From Capsaspora owczarzaki ATCC 30864 (Eukaryota; Opisthokonta; Filasterea): DNA of 64,000 nucleotides. The stretch is from NCBI RefSeq assembly GCF_000151315.2, contig NW_011887300.1, positions 1,098,373 to 1,162,372 on the forward strand, written 5' to 3'. Made by a program: the position numbers and the translations under genes. Positions 32,172 to 47,149 of the stretch are shown here, one piece after another (the stretch's first letter is position 1; every line of letters begins with the position of its first letter). The notes beneath the pieces were generated by a model. The model saw only the letters and a list, made by a program, of their open reading frames with translations. It ran no database searches and was not told where the DNA came from.

Positions 32172-35100
32172 TCACAGCATTGCCCCAAAGTCGCGAATCG
32201 TAGTCCCATCCTCGAAGGTGTTCAAAGCTTTGACCAGCTGCGAAAAGCTTGGCCGCAATTCCGGCTTCGCGTTCCAGCAGCTGAGCATGAGGTTGAAGAG
32301 GTCGGCGGTGCAGTGCTCCGGCATGGGCAGTCGGCCACCGGCCTCAACGTGAGCCAGCGTTTCACGTCCTTCCATTTTGTCGTACGGCGTTGCGCCGTAA
32401 CTACAGCATTCCCCTGCAACCAAGCATCGCCGTCATTGAGCACAATCTGTTGGCTCGCGCCATTGCGATAGAGCCTTTCACTTACAGGCTGTTACGCCAA
32501 ACGACCAAACATCGGACATGGTCGAGAACTTGCGAAAGGTCATTGTTTCCGGCGCCATCCACTACAATCACAAACACAATCAGAATCACATACTACCAGC
32601 AGTGGAGCCATCTGACTCGACCCACCTTCACAGGAAGCTTGCCACGAGTCTGCATGCGATAATAATCCTGCTCGTCGGTCAGCTCGCGAGAAAGCCCGAA
32701 ATCGGCAATCTTGACCACCATTCCCTGCCCCACGAGACAGTTGCGTGCGGCGAGGTCGCGGTGTACAAAGTGGAGCGTGCCCAGGTACTCCATGCCGAGT
32801 GCAATCTGGCGAATGGCATGCACCTGCTCGTTCTCTGTCCACTCGAACGACTGCTTTTTGGACTTTTGCAGCAGCGTGCGCAAATCGCCGTACTGCACAA
32901 ACTCAAGCAGAACGAGGTGCGGCTCTGACTCGACAAGAGCCGCAAGCAGACGCACGACATTCGGATGCACAAACGGAGCCATCAACTTGGCCTCGCTCTC
33001 AAAGTCCTTGCGGGATTTCTCGTCAGCATTGGACTTGAGCGACTTGACTGCAACTTGAATGGTTTCGGTTGCTGCAGGCCCAAGCAAGTTTTGAGCTCGC
33101 GGGGGCAGCACGCTGAACGGCACTTGACCCAGCGCCACATCGCCAAAGTTCCCGCTGGCAAGGTGTTTCACAATGGTCAAACCTTCACGAACGCGACGAG
33201 AATTGCTGCCAGCAACATACGGGCTTTCATTGTCGTAGAATTCCTCTGTAAAGGGCGACGAGAAATCTTCGTACAAAGGCTCCGGCTGCTTTTGGCCGAC
33301 CGTGGCGACGCCCTCCACTTTCGTGGCGAAGGCTGGGACGTCCTCCACTTTGCGAGACTCGGGCGCACGGGGAAGTGGAGTAGTGGTCAGTTCAACAGCT
33401 TCTTGATAGATTGGATCGGTAGAGTTCTTCTTAGCACAGCTGCACGTTGCATGCGCCGACGTCGCAACACGATGAATCCCACTCCAAAAATCGCAACAAC
33501 CACAACAGACACCACAGCAGCAGCGATGGCAGCCGCTGGAGATGAAGATGAGTCTTGCGAGCCGCCACCGCCGTGTTGTGCAATAGAGGATGCAACAGAT
33601 GCAGCAGACGCCGATGCTGTTGAAGCAGCAGAAGCGGAGAGCGCTGAGGTAGCGGAAACAACCGACGCAATTGAGGAGGCCGATTGTAGGGACGCGACTG
33701 AAGCGATCGAAGCGAGCGGAAAGCACGATCCACTCAGGATGCCATATCCTTCGTAGCACTGAGTGCACACAGAAGATGAAGTGCAGGACAGGCAATTGAC
33801 CTCGCAACACGAGCTGTTCCCAAAGGCAAAGCAGGTGGCGCAAACTGTATCGCACGCTGCAATCCGAATGTCAGTGATGTGATCTCGTCCGAGAATTGCA
33901 GGCCACGTCGCAAACTTACGGTACGGCTGGGACGCACTGCCGTACGTGCTGGGCGGAGCGACAGTGTGTCCATCAAAGGTAAAGTTGTTGGGGGCCAGAT
34001 ACGGGAACGAAACCGACAACCACAAGCCATTTTGCAGGCCCTGAAACAGACCGGGCGGCAGAGTTGTGAGGGGGTTGTCATTCAAAACCCTGCAAATAGG
34101 ACAAAGTAAGAAGCAAATCGAATCCGTGCAATGAGAGTAAATACTAACAATCTCGTCAGCGCAGTCAGACCAGTGAAGGTGTTTGTAGCAATACTGGCGA
34201 GTCTGTTGCTGGCTAGATCCCTAGAGATAGAATCGCAAACGAGTGAGCCATTCGTACTGGATTCCTCACGCCCTTGCTTGCTTACAATGAATTCAGCTTG
34301 GTCAGGCCTGTGAATGCGTCGGTCGGAATGCTGGTGAATAGGTTGTGGTCTAGGTACCTTCATAGCGAGCCGAAAAAAGTGAGCCGCGTGTGTGTGGATC
34401 TTCATGTTGTTGTTTGCTTACAATCCTGTCAGAAGAGGCAGGCCTGCAAATGCGTTGGCAGGAATGTTGGAGATGTGGTTGCCCGAAAGAGAGCTACAGA
34501 TGAAGTCGCAAGCGGTGAGCCGTCTGCGCACGATTCTTCATGTCTTTGCTTGCGTACAATGAATTCAGCTTGGTCAGGCCTGTGAATGCGTCGGTCGGAA
34601 TGCTAGTGAACAAATTGCTGTCTAGATATCTACATAGCGAGTCGCCAAAAAGTGAGCCGCGTGTGTGTGGATCTTCATGTCGTTGTTTGCTTACAATCCC
34701 GTCAGAAAAGGCAGGCCTGTGAAATCGGTTGCAGAAATGTTGGTGAGCCGATTGCTGCCAAGCCACCTGCAAATAGAGTCAAAAACAAGTGAGGAGGTTG
34801 AACACGGCTCTTCATGTCTTTGCTTGCTAACATGACATTCAGCCCAGTGAGCTCTGTGAGCGCGTTGACGGGAATGCTGGTGAGCTCGTTTGCGCTAATA
34901 TCCCTATCATACATATGGAGTCGCAAACGAGTGAGCCGTTGGTGGGTTCTTCATGGTTTGCCGGGCTTACAGGTAAAGCAATGCAGACAGGCCTGTAAAT
35001 GCGTTGGCAGGAATGCTGGAGATCAGGTTGCTCTGCAGGTACCTATCGACCGCAGACCAATGATGAGGGGACAAAGCTTCATTCAATTCAAGGTCAACTT

Positions 35101-36503
35101 GACGGCAACGCTTACAGCTCTGTTGTGTCGACTGGGATTCCGCTTGGAATGGCATTGAGGGATTTGCCACTGCAATCGACTAGAGTTCCCGTGCATGTGC
35201 ACACGCCGCCAGTGCCACAAGCAAGCGGAGCACATGATCCACCCGTCAAGCCGTAACCCTCATAGCACTGAGTGCACACAGCGGATGAACTGCACGCCAG
35301 ACAATTGATTCCGCAACACGAACTGTTCCCAGCGGCATGGCAGGTGGCACAGGCTGTATCGCACACTGCAGAACACATGTCAGTGAAACGATCACCTTGT
35401 GATTGCAGACATATCGAAACTTACTGTATGGAGTGTCTGCACTGCCGTAGGTGCTAGGCGGAGCGACAGTATTGCTACCAAAGGTAAAGTTGTTGGGGCT
35501 CAGGTATTGGTTCACATCAGACAAATACAGGCCATTTTGCAATCCCTTGAACAGACCAGGCGGCAAAGTGGTGACAGGATTGAAATTCAAAGCCCTGCAA
35601 ATACCGTAAAGTCAGAGGAGAATTGAATGCGCGCATTCACAGAGTGCTTGCTTACAATCGGGTCAATGCAGTCAGGCCTGTGAATGCGTTTGCAGAAATG
35701 CTAGTGATCTGGTTGTAAGATAAATATCTATATCACGTCGCAAACGAATGAGCCGGATGTGTGCAATTCTTCATACATTTGATTGTGCTTACAGGGTAGT
35801 CAGCGCAGTCAGGCCTGTGAATGTGTTTGCGGAAATGCTGGTGATCTGGTTGCTGTCCAAATTCCTGCAAAATAGGAAAATAGTGTCGCAATCGAGTGAG
35901 CTGTTTTTGTGCGAGATTCCTCTGGTCTTTGCGTGCTTACATTTGTGTCAGCGCGCTCAGCCCTGAGAAGGCGTTTGCGGCAATACTGGTCAGCGGGTTG
36001 GTGGAGAGAGATCTGCAGGATACGAGTCGCAAATGAGTCAGCCGTCTGAGTTCGATTCCTCCTGTTTGTGCTTGCGTACATGAATTGCAGCGCAGTCAGG
36101 CCGGTGAATGAGTTTGCGGGAATGCTGGCGAGCTGGTTGGTATGCAAATATCTAAAGATCGAGAGACTCGAACGAGTGAGCGGCCGCGAGGGTTCGATTC
36201 TTCATGTCTTTTGCTGGCTTACAATGTAGTCAGCGCAGTCAGGCCCGTGAATGAAGATGCAGAGATGCTACTGATCTCGTTGCCTCGCAGATCCCTATCG
36301 AACGTGCTCCCATCAGAAGGATGATGCTTCAATTCAACTTGTGCTCAACAGCAACACGTACAAGATGGTTGTGGTGACTGGGATTCCGGTTGGAATGGTC
36401 GGGAGAGCGTGACCAGCGCAATCGACAGTAGTTCCCGTGCAATCGCATTCGGTGCAGGCATCGACGGCCTGTGCCAGCTGGACGTGATGGACGACGCCGC
36501 ATA

Positions 36504-36531
36504 GAGGGGGGTCGCCTGAATATGAACAAAA
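36504..36531 (+). repeat. Left terminal inverted repeat of the pogo element
   Basis: 28 of 28 bases match the reverse complement of 39666-39693. The TA at 36502-36503 precedes it. Confidence 0.95.
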
Positions 36532-36662
36532 AGTGTTCGCTGGACTACATTAGGGTTTTCCGTTTGAATATGAACACACTGGTATTTGCGTCACAAGTCG
36601 ACTTCGTGGTCTCTGATCTGCTCCCCAGTTTGAATTTATAATAAAGTCATTCTTTTTTATCG

Positions 36663-39254
36663 ATGGCGGGTGCATCCGAGGCGGCAACTCGGTGTCTCGC
36701 GTGGCTGCAGGCAGTGAAGGCTGCGCCCGAAGGAGAAAAGCACAATGTTGCCGTCGCAGTCGCTCTCAAGCTTGTCTACCAAGACTCTGTGACCCTTCAA
36801 GGGGGCGAAATCTATCGCCCTACAGGCTGGACAACACGGGCCATAGCCGCGCGGCTGGCGGAACAGGGCTATCAGTGCGGTCACACCACAGTTCATGGTT
36901 GGAAAACGAAACACGCGAATTCAGCCGAGTGGATTCGTTCCAGCCCGCTCGATCAGGTGCTCCAGCTCGTCAAGGAGAGCCCATCGTGCGGAGGACAGAG
37001 CATTTTCACTGAAGATGAACTGGAGTACTGTATCCGGCTGCTGGAGGGGTTTGCCCGGGCTGGGCAGTGTCTCAACCAGAAGCAGGCGGGCGCTTATCTT
37101 GTGAAACTCTCACGCCTCCCGCGCATGTCGGGCGCCCCGCGTCGCCAGTTCGCCGGCAGTCTGCCGAGCCATGAATGGTGGAATGCCTTTCTGCGCGATG
37201 CTCGCGGGCGCCTAGCCATCCGCAAGGGTCGAACGCTGGAGCTCACCAGGATTGCCGCTTTACAAGCTGAAACACTCGATTGCCTCCCCGGACTTTTGAA
37301 ACAGCTGTTCGATGAGCATCCGCTTCTTGTGGAGGAGCCCGGTCGGATTTCCAACATGGACGAGACAGAAATCACGACCCGTTTTTTTGCGGGTCGTGTC
37401 ATTTGCACTCCCTCGTCAGACACGCGTTCTGCGGTCGTTCAAGGGGGGCACCAGCATTCACTCGGGGCGCACATCACGGGCGTTTTCACCATCTGCACTG
37501 ATGGCTCATCCCCGCCCTTGCCTATGATCATCTTCTCGAAAAACAACAAGATACGCAGCGCGACAGCAGATGTGGGTGACAATAAGGCTGTATTTGAAGT
37601 CTCGCCAAACGGCTACATGACAAAAGAGCTGTTTCACAAGTACCTCTCGTCCTGGGAAGAAGCCATGCGTGCAAAGTACACAACAGGGCCATTGCTTCTC
37701 GTCATGGATGGGTCGTCGACGCACCAGCTGTCGGCTGACGTGCTTGCGCGCTTTCTGGAAAGCGACATCCACGTCCTTGTCCTACCCGCGCACACAAGCA
37801 CTGAATCGCAGCCGCTGGACCGCACGGTGTTTGGATTCTTCAAAACCACTTTGCAAACCCTTTACAAGCAGGCGATTGAGTCCAAGGCGTTCGAGAACGA
37901 CGACAAGATGAGAGTTCATTGCGCCCTGCTCGCTTGGGACAGGGTGATGAGAAGAAAGCGATGCATCCGGGCAGGATTTCGACTGACTGGCATCTGGCCG
38001 CTTGATGAGACGCTCTACAAGTCGTGGATACTGAATCCAACCCCTCCTGCATCGGAACTCGAGCTGGACCTGCTTGATACAGATTCAACTCCGACCGCCC
38101 CGCTTCCATCCCTGGATCGACAGAACACTCCTCCGGTGATCGATTCAGCCGTCATTACGCCTGTTCTCACTCGGAGCAAGTCCTCGTCCCGTTCCTCCGA
38201 CGCGGAGGCCTCCACCTCCAGCACTCCGTCAGCGTCCGGGTCGCCCTCGTTTGTACAGTCCGTCTCGCAGCTGGTTGCCATCCAAGATATTTCTAGCGTG
38301 GCCCTCAGCAACATCTCTACCTCACCTCTCGAGAAGGACAAGCGATACATCGAGCATGAGGCCTTCGGGGCAATCCGCAAACTTACAGGAGTTACGCTCA
38401 CGTTCCAAGATGTCGTCACGACGGTCAAGTTTTCTCTCTCACTGCCGGCACATCCTACGCACAAGGCTAAACCGGCTCCGGCCTACATTGCGACGACACC
38501 TGAAAGGCTGCAGTCGACCCTGGCGAAGGAGGCCGCCGCGGCGGAGAAGGAGCGCAAAGAAAGCCGACTGTTGCCTGCCCGCTTGGAATACCAATCAAGG
38601 GTTGCCGCGTACGAAAACGAAAAGCAAAGGTTGATCACGGCTATCGCAGCGTTGGATGCGCAGCTTCGTGAGCTTCAAACACAGACGGTAAATCCGTTGC
38701 AGCAGATGACCATTGACAACACTCAGCTTCAACGCCAACTGACAGAGATTCAACTCAGCCAGCTCAAGCAGCCGAAACGTGGCTATGGTGGTCGCAAAAC
38801 AACGTCACACCTGGGTCCCAAGACGGCGTCGCGGTCGAAGAGGCTGTCGCGCAGCGCAGAGCCAGTGAGAACTGCTGCAGCACAGGACAGCTCCTCTGAA
38901 GATTCGGACCGCGAAGACGACGAGGATCAGAGCGACTGGGACTCCGACGATTCCAGACTAGGTCAAGTGCGGCGGACTGGCACACAGAGCGAGAGCGACG
39001 TGGAGTTTGATCTCAGCCCGGCTGAAAAGCGGAATATGGCGGAAAATGTTCGCCTGCGTCCAATGCGCCGAGCCCGCGAGCAGGCACCCGATCATGATGA
39101 TGATGCACCCGGTCGTATTTCGCAACGAGCGCGCCTCGATAGTCCCGATCAGGCTGTGCAGGCGCCTCCCGCGCTGGTGGATCTGTCGCACCGGCCAAAT
39201 CACCTTGGCTTTGTCCCCGCGATGTTCCCGTCCCAACACCTGTTCATCCAATAA
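36663..39254 (+). CDS. pogo-like transposase (DDE superfamily 1)
   Basis: 863 residues with no internal stop. The N-terminal part has helix-turn-helix-like segments (TTRAIAARLAEQGYQCGHTT, then a CENP-B-like block ending SLPSHEWWNAFL). The catalytic core shows the pogo DDxD pattern: MDETEI (near residue 237), LLVMDGSSTHQ (near 346) and LPAHTSTESQPLD with FGFFKTTL. After about residue 470 there is an unusually long 390-residue C-terminal extension with a Ser/Thr-rich part, a predicted coiled coil (ENEKQRLITAIAALDAQL) and an acidic region. Pogo transposases are usually nearer 500 residues. It cuts and pastes at TA targets. The three catalytic aspartates are all present, so it may be active. Confidence 0.92.
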   Translation: MAGASEAATRCLAWLQAVKAAPEGEKHNVAVAVALKLVYQDSVTLQGGEIYRPTGWTTRAIAARLAEQGYQCGHTTVHGWKTKHANSAEWIRSSPLDQVLQLVKESPSCGGQSIFTEDELEYCIRLLEGFARAGQCLNQKQAGAYLVKLSRLPRMSGAPRRQFAGSLPSHEWWNAFLRDARGRLAIRKGRTLELTRIAALQAETLDCLPGLLKQLFDEHPLLVEEPGRISNMDETEITTRFFAGRVICTPSSDTRSAVVQGGHQHSLGAHITGVFTICTDGSSPPLPMIIFSKNNKIRSATADVGDNKAVFEVSPNGYMTKELFHKYLSSWEEAMRAKYTTGPLLLVMDGSSTHQLSADVLARFLESDIHVLVLPAHTSTESQPLDRTVFGFFKTTLQTLYKQAIESKAFENDDKMRVHCALLAWDRVMRRKRCIRAGFRLTGIWPLDETLYKSWILNPTPPASELELDLLDTDSTPTAPLPSLDRQNTPPVIDSAVITPVLTRSKSSSRSSDAEASTSSTPSASGSPSFVQSVSQLVAIQDISSVALSNISTSPLEKDKRYIEHEAFGAIRKLTGVTLTFQDVVTTVKFSLSLPAHPTHKAKPAPAYIATTPERLQSTLAKEAAAAEKERKESRLLPARLEYQSRVAAYENEKQRLITAIAALDAQLRELQTQTVNPLQQMTIDNTQLQRQLTEIQLSQLKQPKRGYGGRKTTSHLGPKTASRSKRLSRSAEPVRTAAAQDSSSEDSDREDDEDQSDWDSDDSRLGQVRRTGTQSESDVEFDLSPAEKRNMAENVRLRPMRRAREQAPDHDDDAPGRISQRARLDSPDQAVQAPPALVDLSHRPNHLGFVPAMFPSQHLFIQ

Positions 39255-39665
39255 ACATACATGTTGCATACATCAATTTCTGCATAACGGAAGGGACTTC
39301 GGACTCGCCTATCCAAAGTGCCGCCGTATGGCTGTTTGGCTGGGTTGAGCCTCCATCGGGCCCTGCGGCCACCCCTGCGCGATTCTGTCCCGCTTCTTGC
39401 CAGAAATAGGAAGATCTAACTCGATAACATAGGCACCGGTGAGAGATGGTCCGCCTGGATGAGTATGGTCGCGACCAGAGAGGCCGTCCGCCTGAATATG
39501 AACAAGCGTAATGGTCGTCCAGCAAAATGAGCGAAACTGCCACGCGATACCCTACCAACCCATCGCCCGCCGCCGACCTCTCCGTCGCACCTATATATTA
39601 AAAGAGTGTGTCGAGTACTTTAATGTCAAAAACTCGGGCGGCACTCGAATAGCCAGCAACTTTTA

Positions 39666-39693
39666 TTTTGTTCATATTCAGGCGACCCCCCTC
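39666..39693 (-). repeat. Right terminal inverted repeat of the pogo element
   Basis: Pairs perfectly with 36504-36531 and is followed by TA at 39694-39695. Confidence 0.95.
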
Positions 39694-39735
39694 TAGCAGC
39701 AAAAGCAGCCGTAAGGCAAATCCTGTGGTTGTCAT

Positions 39736-41876: not shown

Positions 41877-44800
41877 CGTTCTTTTCCTTCTTCCGCGCTT
41901 TTCTCGGCTTTCTTGACCGATCAGCCAACGCACAAAGCGAGTCGAGTGCAGTGATGACGCGAATGTCCGTCGTTTCGCTGCGCTGTCAAAAACCGTGATC
42001 ACGCGGAGTTTAGATCACCAAAACCCGGCTTTTTTGAATGAAATGAATGGCTGGAAGTTTTGGTCGCGACATGACCCGTCCGTCCATTGAGATTTGTCTG
42101 GTCCTGGTCCTGCTTCACCACCAGCATTGAAACATTGGAAACAGAGCTGGGCGTTGAATGGCTGAAGGGCACCCCCTTTGTCGTTTTGGGGAGTTGGGAG
42201 ACGTCAGGGGAGCTTTTTGTGTGGTAGAGTGAGTGACTGCAGTCACAAGGCGAAAAAAAAAACGGTAGCGAAAAAAAATAATGTGATCAAAGCGTCGTGC
42301 AAGGCGACGGGAAGGAGCAAGAGCAAGTAGTGGCTATGGTCAGCAGCTCACTGGGTGGGTAGAGCAGGGAAGCTGGAAGAAGCAGAAGAAGAAGGCGAGC
42401 GGGGTGGAATCGCGGTTTGATTGCGGTTTAGAGCGGCGAGCGAGCAAAGAGCGACAGGCACCTTTTTGAGGCGGCTGTTCTCCCACACACGTCGTGAAGC
42501 AAGTGCTTGCGAGCTGAGTTTATAGTCAGAGTGAGCATGAAAAGTGAGTTGAGCAGTGTGAGCAAAGCGAGTCGAACTGACGCGACCGTCATCGGTTTCT
42601 TCTTTTTTTTTTTTTTTTTTTTTTTTTGGTTTTGTGTGTCTCGTGCTCCCGTCCTTCTCACTTCGCTCTCGCTCACACACTCACTCACTCACACACTCAC
42701 ACACTCTCACACACACACACACTCTCTCCTTCATGGGACTGACTCGCGTTCCCTCGTTCGTTTTGATCCCCTTTTTTCTTCTTCTTCCAATTTGCTACCA
42801 ATGGACCTGCGAGGAGCAGCTGACCTTTTTTTTTTTTTTTCATTTCATTATTATTATTATTATTTTATTTTGTTTTCAATGGAATTTTGTATGGCGAACA
42901 AAGTGCGGGTTTTTTTTTCAAACTTTTATTTTAGGACGACAAAGTGGCTGAAAACAAAAAACAAGGCAAGAGAGAGAGGGAAGCAGGGGAAGCAGGGAGG
43001 GGAAAGGGAGGGGGGAAAAGGGGGGAAAACGAGCCAGAAGAAAGGAGCTCAACCCGCTTCTGAGCAAAAATACACAAATGTCAAACTATGGTGTAAAATG
43101 GTGTAAAATGGCACAGAGCAACAATAATAGAAGGCTTTTTGATCGGATCGGCCTTCCAACATCTCATCTGGTTTTGTGTTTTTTTTGCTCTCATTGACCT
43201 TCTTCTTCTTCTTCTTGAGTGCACTGACTGACTTTTGATCGTTTGCTTTGAAAATGTTTGCCTTGTAGCTGCGCACTTTGATCCAACGACGGCAAGTTCG
43301 CGCGTTCTGAGCATTCCTGCGTCTGGATGTGGGAGCAGGACTAGCGGCTATTTTGACACCTGGACTGGCACGAGCTGGACTGGCACGAGCACCAGCAACG
43401 CTGTCGGCTGCAACTCGCAAAGTCCCAGCCGGCCTGACTGTATCAATAGCAGCGGCACGTGTGGCGGCGCAGATTTCACCGAGGACAGCAGCAAGGGCGA
43501 AATGTTCAAGTGCCCGGATCCTTCAAACAGCGTTGACACTGCCATTCGCGTGGGCAATTCGTTCTCCATTTCCGCAGTGTTCAAATGGTCGCCAAACAAC
43601 AGCGTGCGCTACGTTACCATTGTGGCCAAAGGCTGTGGAACGGTGGGCACGACCAATACGCTCGACACCCAGTTTTGGGTTGGCGCTGTGAATCGTGCGG
43701 GGTGGGGCACGCAGTACCAAATGTGCTTCCATGCTGGCTCCGGCACGTCCGCGGGAACGAACGGTTTCCCCAACCTGATTTGTGGCGGGACGCCGCTCCC
43801 TTCCACCTCAACCCCAAGCGTGGTGACGGTGACTGTTGCCGGCCAGATGCTCTCCATCTACTTTAATGGCGCATTGCAAATCGGACCGGTTGCACTCACG
43901 TCCGCGAATAACTACGCCTCGGCGTTTCCCATCACTCTTGGCGCGCTCCCCACCTGCGGGACTCAAGCTGCTTGTACCTCTTCGACATCGGGCTGCAACT
44001 CGATTTCCGGCCTTTGGTTTGACCGCACTCAGCTCTACGACGTCAACATGCAAAACGTTGCCATGCCACAATCCGACGTGGTCAGCATGGTGTGCTATTA
44101 CAACGGATTGTACGGCTCTGCGGCTTGCCCCACAAACCAGTGCGGCAACAGCGTCGTCGAGGCGGGTGAAGCGTGCGATCGCGGCGCCAACTGCTTGCCG
44201 GATTGCACCTGTCCCGCCGGAATGTATCCTTCTGGCGGTGGTTGTACGCCATGTCCCAGCGGAAGCAAGTGCCCTGGTGGACTGGCAGGCGCCACCCTGT
44301 GCGGTAACGGCGAGTACCAAGCCTCGACCGGCCAATCCTCCTGCTCCCAATGTGCTCCAGGCTCCGCTTTCACTGGCTCTGGCCGCACGACACCATGTCC
44401 GGCTTGCTCCCCAGGCTCGTACCAAACCGATGGTGGCCGTGCCTCGTGCCAGCCCTGTGCGATGGGCACCGCTTCCACGGACCAGGGCCGCACCACAGAG
44501 TGCCCTTCGTGTACTGGTGGCTGGTATCAAGACCAGACCAGTCAAACGACTTGCCTCCAATGCGCCAAAGGCACTGCTTCCAACGACATCCGACGCACAA
44601 CCCCCTGCACTGGTTGCACTCCCGGACACTACCAGGATGAACTGGGCAAGACGTCGTGCAAGGATTGCGACAGTGGCACGGCGGCCTCCGACTCGAGTCG
44701 CACGACTGCCTGCCCGTCGTGCCTTGCTGGTCAGTTCCAGCCGCAAAGCGGACAGCCTTCGTGCTCCAATTGCACCGAGGGCTCTGCCAGCAGCGACACG

Positions 44801-47149
44801 GGTCGCCAATCGTCGTGTCCCGCGTGTACCTCTGGACATGAGCAGCCCTACTCGGGACAAAGCGCGTGCACAGAGTGCCTTCCGGGATTCTCGTCCCTCA
44901 ATGGCGGCATTCGCTGTGATCCGTGCGGCGCTGGCTGGTACCAGCCAGCGGGCGGCTCCGTCACTTGTGTCAAATGCGATGCAGGAACGGCCAGCTCCGA
45001 CCAGACGCGCGCCTCCGCTTGCCCAGAGTGTCCTGTCGACACCTACCAACCACTCGCTGGAAATTCTGGCTGTCTAGCCTGCAAAGACTTTAGCTCCACG
45101 GAAGGCTTGACAAGACAAACAAGTTCAGCTGCGTGCAAATGCCTTCCTGGTTATTTCAGCGACATTGGCGGTGCTTGCCAACGTACGTCATTCTCCAGCT
45201 CTCTCTCTCTCTCTTGCCATCTTCTGGTCATTTGGATGAGTTTAAATGTCACTCATGAGATGTTTTATTGTTGGATTGTTTGTTTTGCTTTGTTGGCGGG
45301 GGTGTGTGTTTGCTTGCGGTTGTGCAGCCTGCCAAGCTGGAAGTCGCTGTGCTGGGCAGCAATCCTTTGTCTGCAACGAGACGAGCGCATCGTATCAGAA
45401 CCAGGCTGTCCAGTCATCGTGTAAAGTCTGCGACGCGAATGGAACGGTCAGCGCTGACAGGACCACGTGCACTTGTAACGATGGCTATTACTCCCCGGCC
45501 GAGGGTCTCTGCGCAGGTAACGTAACGGGAGTGTTCTTTTCATTGGAAGGATGGGCTGGTGCAGTTTTGCTTGCGCAATGTTTGACTCACCCATCTTGGT
45601 GAACGCCTCGCTACACACAGAATGCCCTCCTGGCTTCCGATGCAGAAACGGCATCAAGACGTCTTGCTCGGCAGACAACAACGGCACTATCCTCTGGTAC
45701 CAGGACAAACCCCGTGCGACCGTGTGCAAAGTTTGTTCCAACGGCGAGCCAACCGCAGACAACTCGTTCTGCAACTGCCATCCCGGTTTCTTCGAGCAGA
45801 CAAGTACTTGTCGAGGTAAGATATTGCACCGATTTTGAAGGGAGACGCAGGCTCAGTCATGATGCATCTTTGCTCATATTGACTCATCATGTTGCCTCTT
45901 GCTCATATTGACTTTACTTTTCCATGATAGCTTGTCTTGCCGGATACCAATGTGCCAATGGAACTCTGGTCGCCTGTCTGGACGGTGAATACCAGAACGT
46001 TACCATGCAAGTCAGCTGCAAGCTCTGCCCAGCCAATTCAACCTCCACTCTGCCTGCAAGGACGGCATGCATGTGCCAGGCTGGCCGCGACTTTGACCGT
46101 TATTCTGGCAACTGCACTACCCCACTGAGAAATGTGGAAAGCAGCTCCAACACGTCGGCTGTTGTTGTGCCCATCGTGGTCGTTCTTGTCTTGCTCCTGG
46201 TTGTCGTGCTGATTGTTGCCGTCATTCGTCGCAAACGACAACAAAAGAAACAGTACGTGTGCAAGAGTGCGCGAGTTGCTGTTTTTGTTGTTTCTGATTT
46301 GTCCCTGATTTTTTGTTTGTTTGTTTGTTCGTTTGTTCGTGTGCTCATTATGGTTTTCATCGCTCTCTGCTTGTTCCTTACTTGCTCAGAGTTACTTCCT
46401 CCTTTGAGAACAACCAAGAAATTGGCGCTGTGGGCAACAACATCAACATTGGACTGAACGAGCTGCATCGTTCGGCCTACTCGAGCACGGACGCTCTTTA
46501 CGCAACCGCAACCCTTCCTCGCAAGCAGAAGCCTGTGGAGGAATATGCCGCGCCCGGCTCGTACAGCGCACCCTCCGACTCGTACCTTGCTGCTGGTAGC
46601 ATTCGCAAACCCAAAGCCACGCCACCAAGCGAGTACTTTGCCCCGGAAGATGCCAGCTCTTCGTTCTACAGTGCCCCTTCGACTGACAAAGGCTACTCTG
46701 AACCCGTTTCGGCGGAAGGCGATTCTGCCGTGTACGCTGTTGCCCCCGTGTCGACGTCTCGCACCGTCGTTGCCCCACTTGGCGACGTGTACGCCATGCC
46801 TTCCCGCCAACCCAGCCAACACGGCAAACACTCGGCGCCATCGTCCGTGCCGTCCACGATTGGACCGAAGGGCGACGTGTATGCTGTTTCCTCCACTTCG
46901 GCAACGCTTTCACCCAAGCCTGATCGGAAGTCTGTCAAGTCGAGCGAGATTGGTGATGCCATGTACGCAGAAACGGGCATTCGGCCAAACCCGTCAGCTG
47001 CCGTGCCCACCACGACAGCTCCTTCCGGCGACACGTATGCCGTCAGCACCATGGACAACCGTCCCCAGGCCAACCGTCTCGGCAAGCCGACCATTCCACA
47101 GCTTGATCGGACGAGCAAGCCAACCTTTTCCGCCGACTCTAATATCTGA
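41742..47149 (+). CDS. Type I receptor with Cys-rich GCC2/GCC3-type repeats and a tyrosine-motif tail
   Basis: Exons 41742-41820, 43269-45182, 45328-45516, 45621-45815, 45931-46252 and 46390-47149 sum to 3459 nt, 1152 residues. Exon 1 encodes a signal peptide (MTSSSSRLLSLVAAAVVLV). Residues about 50-290 look like a concanavalin-A/LamG-like fold (FSISAVFKW, TQFWVGAVNRAGWG, ISGLWFDRTQLY). Then come about ten Cys-rich repeats of the type CPxCxxGxYQxxxGQxSCxxC (GCC2/GCC3, ephrin-receptor-like). A TM helix lies at VVVPIVVVLVLLLVVVLIVA. The 270-residue cytoplasmic tail holds at least a dozen tyrosines, six in YxxP form (YAAP, YSAP twice, YFAP, YSEP, YAMP) plus repeated GD[VT]YA. There is no kinase domain. 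The first intron is long (1448 nt), the others 84-145 nt. A surface receptor or adhesion protein that docks SH2 proteins when phosphorylated is the best inference. Confidence 0.85.
41821..43268 (+). other. Long first intron of the Cys-rich receptor
   Basis: 1448 nt from donor GTTAGT to acceptor TTGTAG, about ten times the usual length here. It has T runs at 41848-41873 and 42606-42627, and a CA/CT-rich patch at about 42670-42727. No coding sequence seen inside; it may hold regulatory elements. Confidence 0.7.

What the first reader, a model, noticed from the sequence alone, without database searches (positions are those of the whole stretch)
36502..39735. An apparently intact pogo transposon sits inside the signal-peptide exon of a receptor tyrosine kinase
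The flanks of the element join, when one TA is counted, into a continuous signal-peptide reading frame (MTTTGFALRLLLLLCGVV) that leads into the Cys/LRR ectodomain in the same phase as exon 2 (182 nt, phase 2). The element has perfect 28-bp TIRs, a TA duplication and an open 863-residue transposase. So a recent insertion has separated the start codon and half the signal peptide from a 1000-plus-residue RTK. This may be a strain-specific or heterozygous knockout.
Basis: partly seen in the sequence, partly recalled or inferred. Interest (0 to 1): 0.85.

Follow-up and report, generated by a model that had tools for sequence, protein, structure and literature searches.

The report
Transposon inside a twice-broken receptor gene
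In a single-celled relative of animals, a recently moved piece of jumping DNA sits inside the opening stretch of a gene for a cell-surface receptor; the same gene also seems to have a second, separate break, so this looks like an ordinary young insertion in a receptor gene that is disabled in the assembled genome.

Summary
A 3,190-bp pogo-type element (36504-39693; perfect 28-bp inverted repeats, TA duplication, open 863-codon transposase) splits the 182-nt first exon of a minus-strand LRR receptor tyrosine kinase gene of Capsaspora owczarzaki ATCC 30864. The joined flanks read MTTTGFALRLLLLL|CGVV; 67 of 75 search rows in this genome carry such an exon unbroken across that point. The element is young: another copy is identical over 1,596 aligned bases.

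(1) The gene is broken twice: exon 17 is out of frame between membrane helix and kinase, where 11 of 11 fetched paralogues read through; an assembly error is possible. Even without the element the assembled gene would encode no receptor kinase. (2) The public model (996 aa, 'Fes') starts downstream of the element and splices out the helix with very weak sites, hiding both breaks. (3) Reading into the element gives 45 residues and a stop; no in-frame start or plausible frame-keeping splice was found. Kinase dN/dS (0.10) matches that of paralogues, so decay is recent. Comparing strains is not possible: one culture, described as polymorphic, existed as of 2014.

The parts
36504..39693 (+). pogo-type DNA transposon, 3,190 bp
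   Evidence: TIRs and TA duplication; five copies in the genome, this one included
36504..36531 (+). left terminal inverted repeat, 28 bp
   Evidence: exact reverse complement of the right one
39666..39693 (-). right terminal inverted repeat, 28 bp
36502..36503 (.). TA target-site copy, left
39694..39695 (.). TA target-site copy, right
36663..39254 (+). transposase ORF, 863 codons, DDE_1 domain
   Evidence: 3 residues differ from the C17 copy, whose product equals the public protein CAOG_09158
39696..39735 (-). RTK exon 1, upstream part: ATG and 5' half of the signal peptide
   Evidence: paralogue exons
36362..36503 (-). RTK exon 1, downstream part: rest of the signal peptide and Cys-rich LRR cap, ends in phase 2
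33920..36294 (-). RTK exons 2-16: two LRR blocks with Cys modules; introns of 59-76 nt
   Evidence: gene model; matches public protein P0126
32626..33856 (-). RTK exon 17: Cys module, Ser/Ala-rich stretch, transmembrane helix, juxtamembrane, kinase N-part; out of frame between helix and kinase (about 33410-33450)
   Evidence: 11 of 11 fetched paralogues continuous across the helix/juxtamembrane border; length off modulo 3
32172..32561 (-). RTK exons 18 (32561-32486) and 19 (32413-32172): kinase C-part and stop
   Evidence: identical in P0126

Best explanation
A full-length, probably autonomous pogo-type transposon recently cut-and-pasted into a TA inside the signal-peptide codons of one member of a large LRR receptor tyrosine kinase family in Capsaspora owczarzaki, in antisense orientation to the gene. 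Shown from sequence: element anatomy, the split exon, near-identity to other copies, the frame break in the assembled exon 17. Inferred: from the native start, translation makes a 45-residue peptide and stops inside the element, so the assembled allele makes no secreted receptor; and even without the element the assembled gene would encode no receptor kinase. Both breaks are recent, because the kinase still shows normal constraint. The public gene model conceals both. The order of the two breaks is unknown.
For: TIR/TSD/ORF. Copies: C17 differs at 13 of 3,190 positions with an open 863-codon frame; C10:174135 is identical over 935+661 aligned bases around a run of Ns. Gene model: 19 exons, 18 introns of 59-76 nt. 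Exon 1 unbroken in 67 of 75 rows. Frame break: 11 of 11 fetched kinase-family paralogues read through the helix/juxtamembrane border, the window does not; motif-to-donor distance is 0 modulo 3 in all 7 of 11 paralogues where both motifs were found, 2 modulo 3 in the window. Read-through 45 residues, no in-frame ATG from the element into exon 1. Kinase (198 codons) median dN/dS 0.096 in 11 window pairs against 0.100 in 55 other pairs. Public model P0126 starts at the ATG at 36461, downstream of the element, and removes the helix by a 71-nt 'intron' with donor score -4.0 (18 modelled introns: 1.9 to 13.8) and acceptor score 2.7 (5.5 to 16.1).
Against: No reads or transcripts were available. The frame break might be a consensus error of a draft assembly; the public model probably rests on the same assembly and is not independent. 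One of the 11 paralogues (L069) has a break of its own further down, and two of them (L064, L067) are near-duplicates, so they are not 11 independent controls. The insertion might be heterozygous or carried by part of the culture only. Two published Capsaspora sequences (a coYki primer and a 90-nt coYki arm) found no match in the held genome, which I cannot explain; species identity rests on protein identity and contig lengths.
Confidence: 0.82

Rival explanations
1. The element is the only real lesion; the exon 17 frame break is an assembly or sequencing error, so the empty-site allele would encode an intact RTK.
For: Kinase and juxtamembrane sequence are otherwise clean and constrained; the genome is a draft with N-filled gaps.
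Against: The window has no N and the aligned spot is not a long single-base run; the public gene model also needed a helix-skipping intron there, though it probably shares the assembly. A sampled paralogue on C8 (L069) also has a juxtamembrane break, apparently a 29-nt tandem duplication, so real breaks may occur in the family.
Confidence: 0.25
2. The insertion is polymorphic: one homologue, or part of the culture, carries an empty TA.
For: Cells 'may be diploid' (PMC9170242); the sequenced culture is described as polymorphic and outbred, and young copies are expected to be polymorphic (PMC4007536).
Against: No empty-site copy among the 75 rows; a collapsed assembly would not show one, so this is weak.
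Confidence: 0.45
3. The element is spliced out as an intron and the receptor is still made.
For: The inverted repeat read outward resembles a splice acceptor (TTTGTTCATATTCAG at 36515, score 5.7, at the low end of the 18 modelled acceptors).
Against: It needs a phase-1 donor; the two phase-1 GT sites before the stop score -10.1 and -9.8, and the only passable donor (39618, 2.2) is phase 0. It would leave exon 17 out of frame.
Confidence: 0.04

Closest known systems
Capsaspora pogo-like families Cop1-Cop5 (Carr & Suga 2014, PMC4007536)
   Same: pogo class, conserved TA target, mostly young copies (passages); the C17 copy's product is public as CAOG_09158, in a cluster named 'Transposase'
   Different: I could not say which Cop family it is: no family sequences were read; five copies found here (a lower bound) against 15 to 51 observed copies listed per Cop family in that paper
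Capsaspora transposase W4P2Z5 (P0122)
   Same: 67% identity over 73% of the query
   Different: diverged, so probably a separate family
Capsaspora LRR receptor kinases, e.g. P0127
   Same: signal-peptide-like start, LRRs, Cys modules, helix, tyrosine kinase in one frame; 63% identity
   Different: the window gene has a transposon in exon 1 and a frame break in exon 17

Membership tests
pogo-type DNA transposon | DDE_1 (PF03184) transposase | tested here: met
   55.8 bits, cut-off 22
pogo-type DNA transposon | TA target-site duplication | tested here: met
   TA also at the surviving ends of the other four copies
pogo-type DNA transposon | terminal inverted repeats | tested here: met
   28 bp perfect
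pogo-type DNA transposon | N-terminal CENP-B-like helix-turn-helix (recalled) | tested here: inconclusive
   no Pfam match at E<=0.01 other than DDE_1; no profile or structure comparison made
pogo-type DNA transposon | active transposition | not testable with these tools
   near-identical copies suggest it; no assay
receptor tyrosine kinase | tyrosine kinase domain | tested here: met
   PF07714 162.3 bits; HRDLAARN, DFG, APE present
receptor tyrosine kinase | signal peptide joined to the ectodomain | tested here: not met
   split by the element in the assembled allele; the joined flanks fit paralogue exons; no signal-peptide program was run
receptor tyrosine kinase | membrane helix in frame with the kinase | tested here: not met
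   helix judged by eye and by paralogues; assembly error not excluded

The most novel reading that the evidence does not exclude
The public gene model is partly real: with the signal peptide cut off by the transposon and the membrane helix spliced out through a cryptic 71-nt intron that also bypasses the frame break, a former receptor is expressed as a soluble, cytosolic LRR tyrosine kinase; a transposon and a frame break together turned a receptor into an intracellular kinase.
Probability: 0.03. Interest if true: 0.7.

Novelty: new member of a known kind. Interest (0 to 1): 0.3.

Why it matters
It looks like gene loss in progress in the large receptor kinase family of a close relative of animals, and it shows that a reference gene model can look complete (996 aa, 'Fes') while hiding a transposon and a frame break. 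Counts of Capsaspora RTKs should treat this locus as a probable pseudogene or polymorphic null. The mechanism, a young transposon in an exon, is ordinary.

Tried and rejected
Start codon supplied by the element: none in frame between the last in-frame stop and exon 1. Element acting as an intron: rejected on phase and donor scores. An intron explaining the frame change in exon 17: 11 of 11 fetched paralogues have none there, and the one used by the public model has a donor and an acceptor weaker than all 18 modelled ones. A haplotype copy of the locus with an empty site: none among 75 rows. Species check by two published coYki sequences: no match. Enrichment of pogo relatives near LRR-RTK first exons: 4 of 37 pogo loci lie within 5 kb of one of 75 exon rows, one of the four being the element of this finding; 1.15 expected by within-contig shuffling, P 0.025. 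The 37 come from the 43 rows after I left out 6 further rows belonging to elements already counted; two contig lengths in that script were assumed and some were taken from public contig lengths, so I do not rely on it. Literature: the listings showed no paper on this insertion; only PMC4007536 (outline with abstract, and passages), PMC9170242 (passages) and PMC10232365 (passages, not used) were opened.

Full report
What is there. The window lies in G000 contig C9 (27.46 Mb, 29 contigs). The product of the C17 copy of the transposase ORF is identical over 863 residues to public protein P0121, named CAOG_09158 of Capsaspora owczarzaki ATCC 30864. The RTK exons match public Capsaspora protein P0126, and three contig lengths printed for G000 (C2 2,667,796; C13 955,234; C16 798,668) equal contig lengths printed for public Capsaspora proteins; others differ, C9 among them (1,374,202 against 1,380,398 for P0126). 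Against this, a published coYki primer and a 90-nt coYki arm found no match; I take the held assembly as incomplete or edited, without proof.

The element. It spans 36504-39693, 3,190 bp, with perfect 28-bp inverted repeats and TA on both sides. It has an 863-codon ORF with a DDE_1 domain. Searches with its two ends gave five copies, this one included (lower bound by the tool's own words). The C17 copy is also 3,190 bp with 13 substitutions and an open frame, 3 residues different. The C10:174135 copy is identical over 935 and 661 bases around a run of Ns. The C5 and second C10 copies share one internal deletion of about 1.4 kb, and the latter has lost its 5' end. I infer a young family with a deletion derivative.

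The gene. On the minus strand a 19-exon gene runs from the ATG at 39735 to the stop at 32172, introns 59-76 nt. Exon 1 is 182 nt, ends in phase 2, and is split after 40 nt by the element. A search with the joined exon gave 75 rows in the genome, none with a stop inside; 67 span the split point, the closest (C2:260098) at 88%. This supports the signal-peptide reading by homology; no signal-peptide program was run.

The second break. In exon 17 the transmembrane helix and the kinase lie in different frames. In 11 of 11 paralogues fetched, taken from the high-scoring kinase rows, the helix/juxtamembrane border is continuous; two of them (L064, L067) are near-duplicates, and L061 and L069 show no LRRs in the stretch fetched. 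The distance from the Cys module to the exon's donor is 0 modulo 3 in all 7 of 11 paralogues in which both motifs were found, and 2 modulo 3 in the window. The assembled frame runs 21 residues past RRRR and stops. Without the element the assembled gene would thus encode an LRR membrane protein without a kinase. One sampled paralogue (L069, C8) has its own break further down, apparently a 29-nt tandem duplication. Whether the window's break is biological or an assembly error cannot be settled here.

The public annotation. P0126 (996 aa, 'tyrosine-protein kinase transforming protein Fes') is this locus. It begins at the ATG at 36461, downstream of the element and in another frame than the LRR cap, uses a weak exon 1 donor (score -1.0), is four residues shorter at each Cys module, and removes the helix by a 71-nt intron whose donor scores -4.0 and acceptor 2.7. 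The 18 introns modelled here score 1.9-13.8 and 5.5-16.1; the score matrix was made from those same 18 introns, so they score high by construction. I read the model as a prediction forced round the two breaks; I did not see what evidence it was built on.

Consequences. Reading from the ATG into the element gives 45 residues, then a stop. No in-frame ATG leads from the element into exon 1. The inverted repeat contains an acceptor-like sequence at 36515, but the phase-1 donors that it needs score -10.1 and -9.8. The kinase part (198 codons) has median dN/dS 0.096 in 11 window pairs and 0.100 in 55 pairs among paralogues, so constraint was lost recently if at all; gene conversion could also keep it low.

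Known or new. Pogo-like Cop families with TA sites and many young copies are described for this species, in a culture called polymorphic and outbred, the only one established as of 2014 (PMC4007536; outline and passages). Cells may be diploid (PMC9170242; passages). The insertion itself was not found described in the searches made. It is a new example of a familiar process.

Noticed in passing
L069 (G000:C8:1264900-1267200), reverse strand, about 1067-1125: A paralogous RTK has a juxtamembrane break that looks like a 29-nt tandem duplication (GQRQPEPL in two frames, 29 nt apart), with a stop.
   Followed up: partly
L046 (G000:C2:251500-261400), about 6126-5200 minus: The paralogue closest in exon 1 (88%) has LRRs, a helix-like stretch and a Tyr-containing tail, but the window's kinase found no match in L046: kinase-less relatives may exist in the family.
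   Followed up: partly
L010 and L012 (C5 and second C10 copies): Two copies of the element share the same internal deletion of about 1.4 kb, suggesting a non-autonomous derivative that moved or was copied.
   Followed up: partly
36515 and the mirrored right repeat: The inverted repeat, read outward, carries an acceptor-like TTTGTTCATATTCAG; it could matter for splicing in other insertions.
   Followed up: partly
G000:C7:173377-174574, upstream of the RTK exon at C7:172113-172286: A decayed pogo relative lies about 1.1 kb upstream of another LRR-RTK start; 4 of 37 pogo loci lie within 5 kb of such exons (P 0.025, weak).
   Followed up: partly
43235-46457: Plus-strand open frames with many cysteine-rich repeats and a membrane-helix-like stretch, perhaps another receptor gene.
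   Followed up: no
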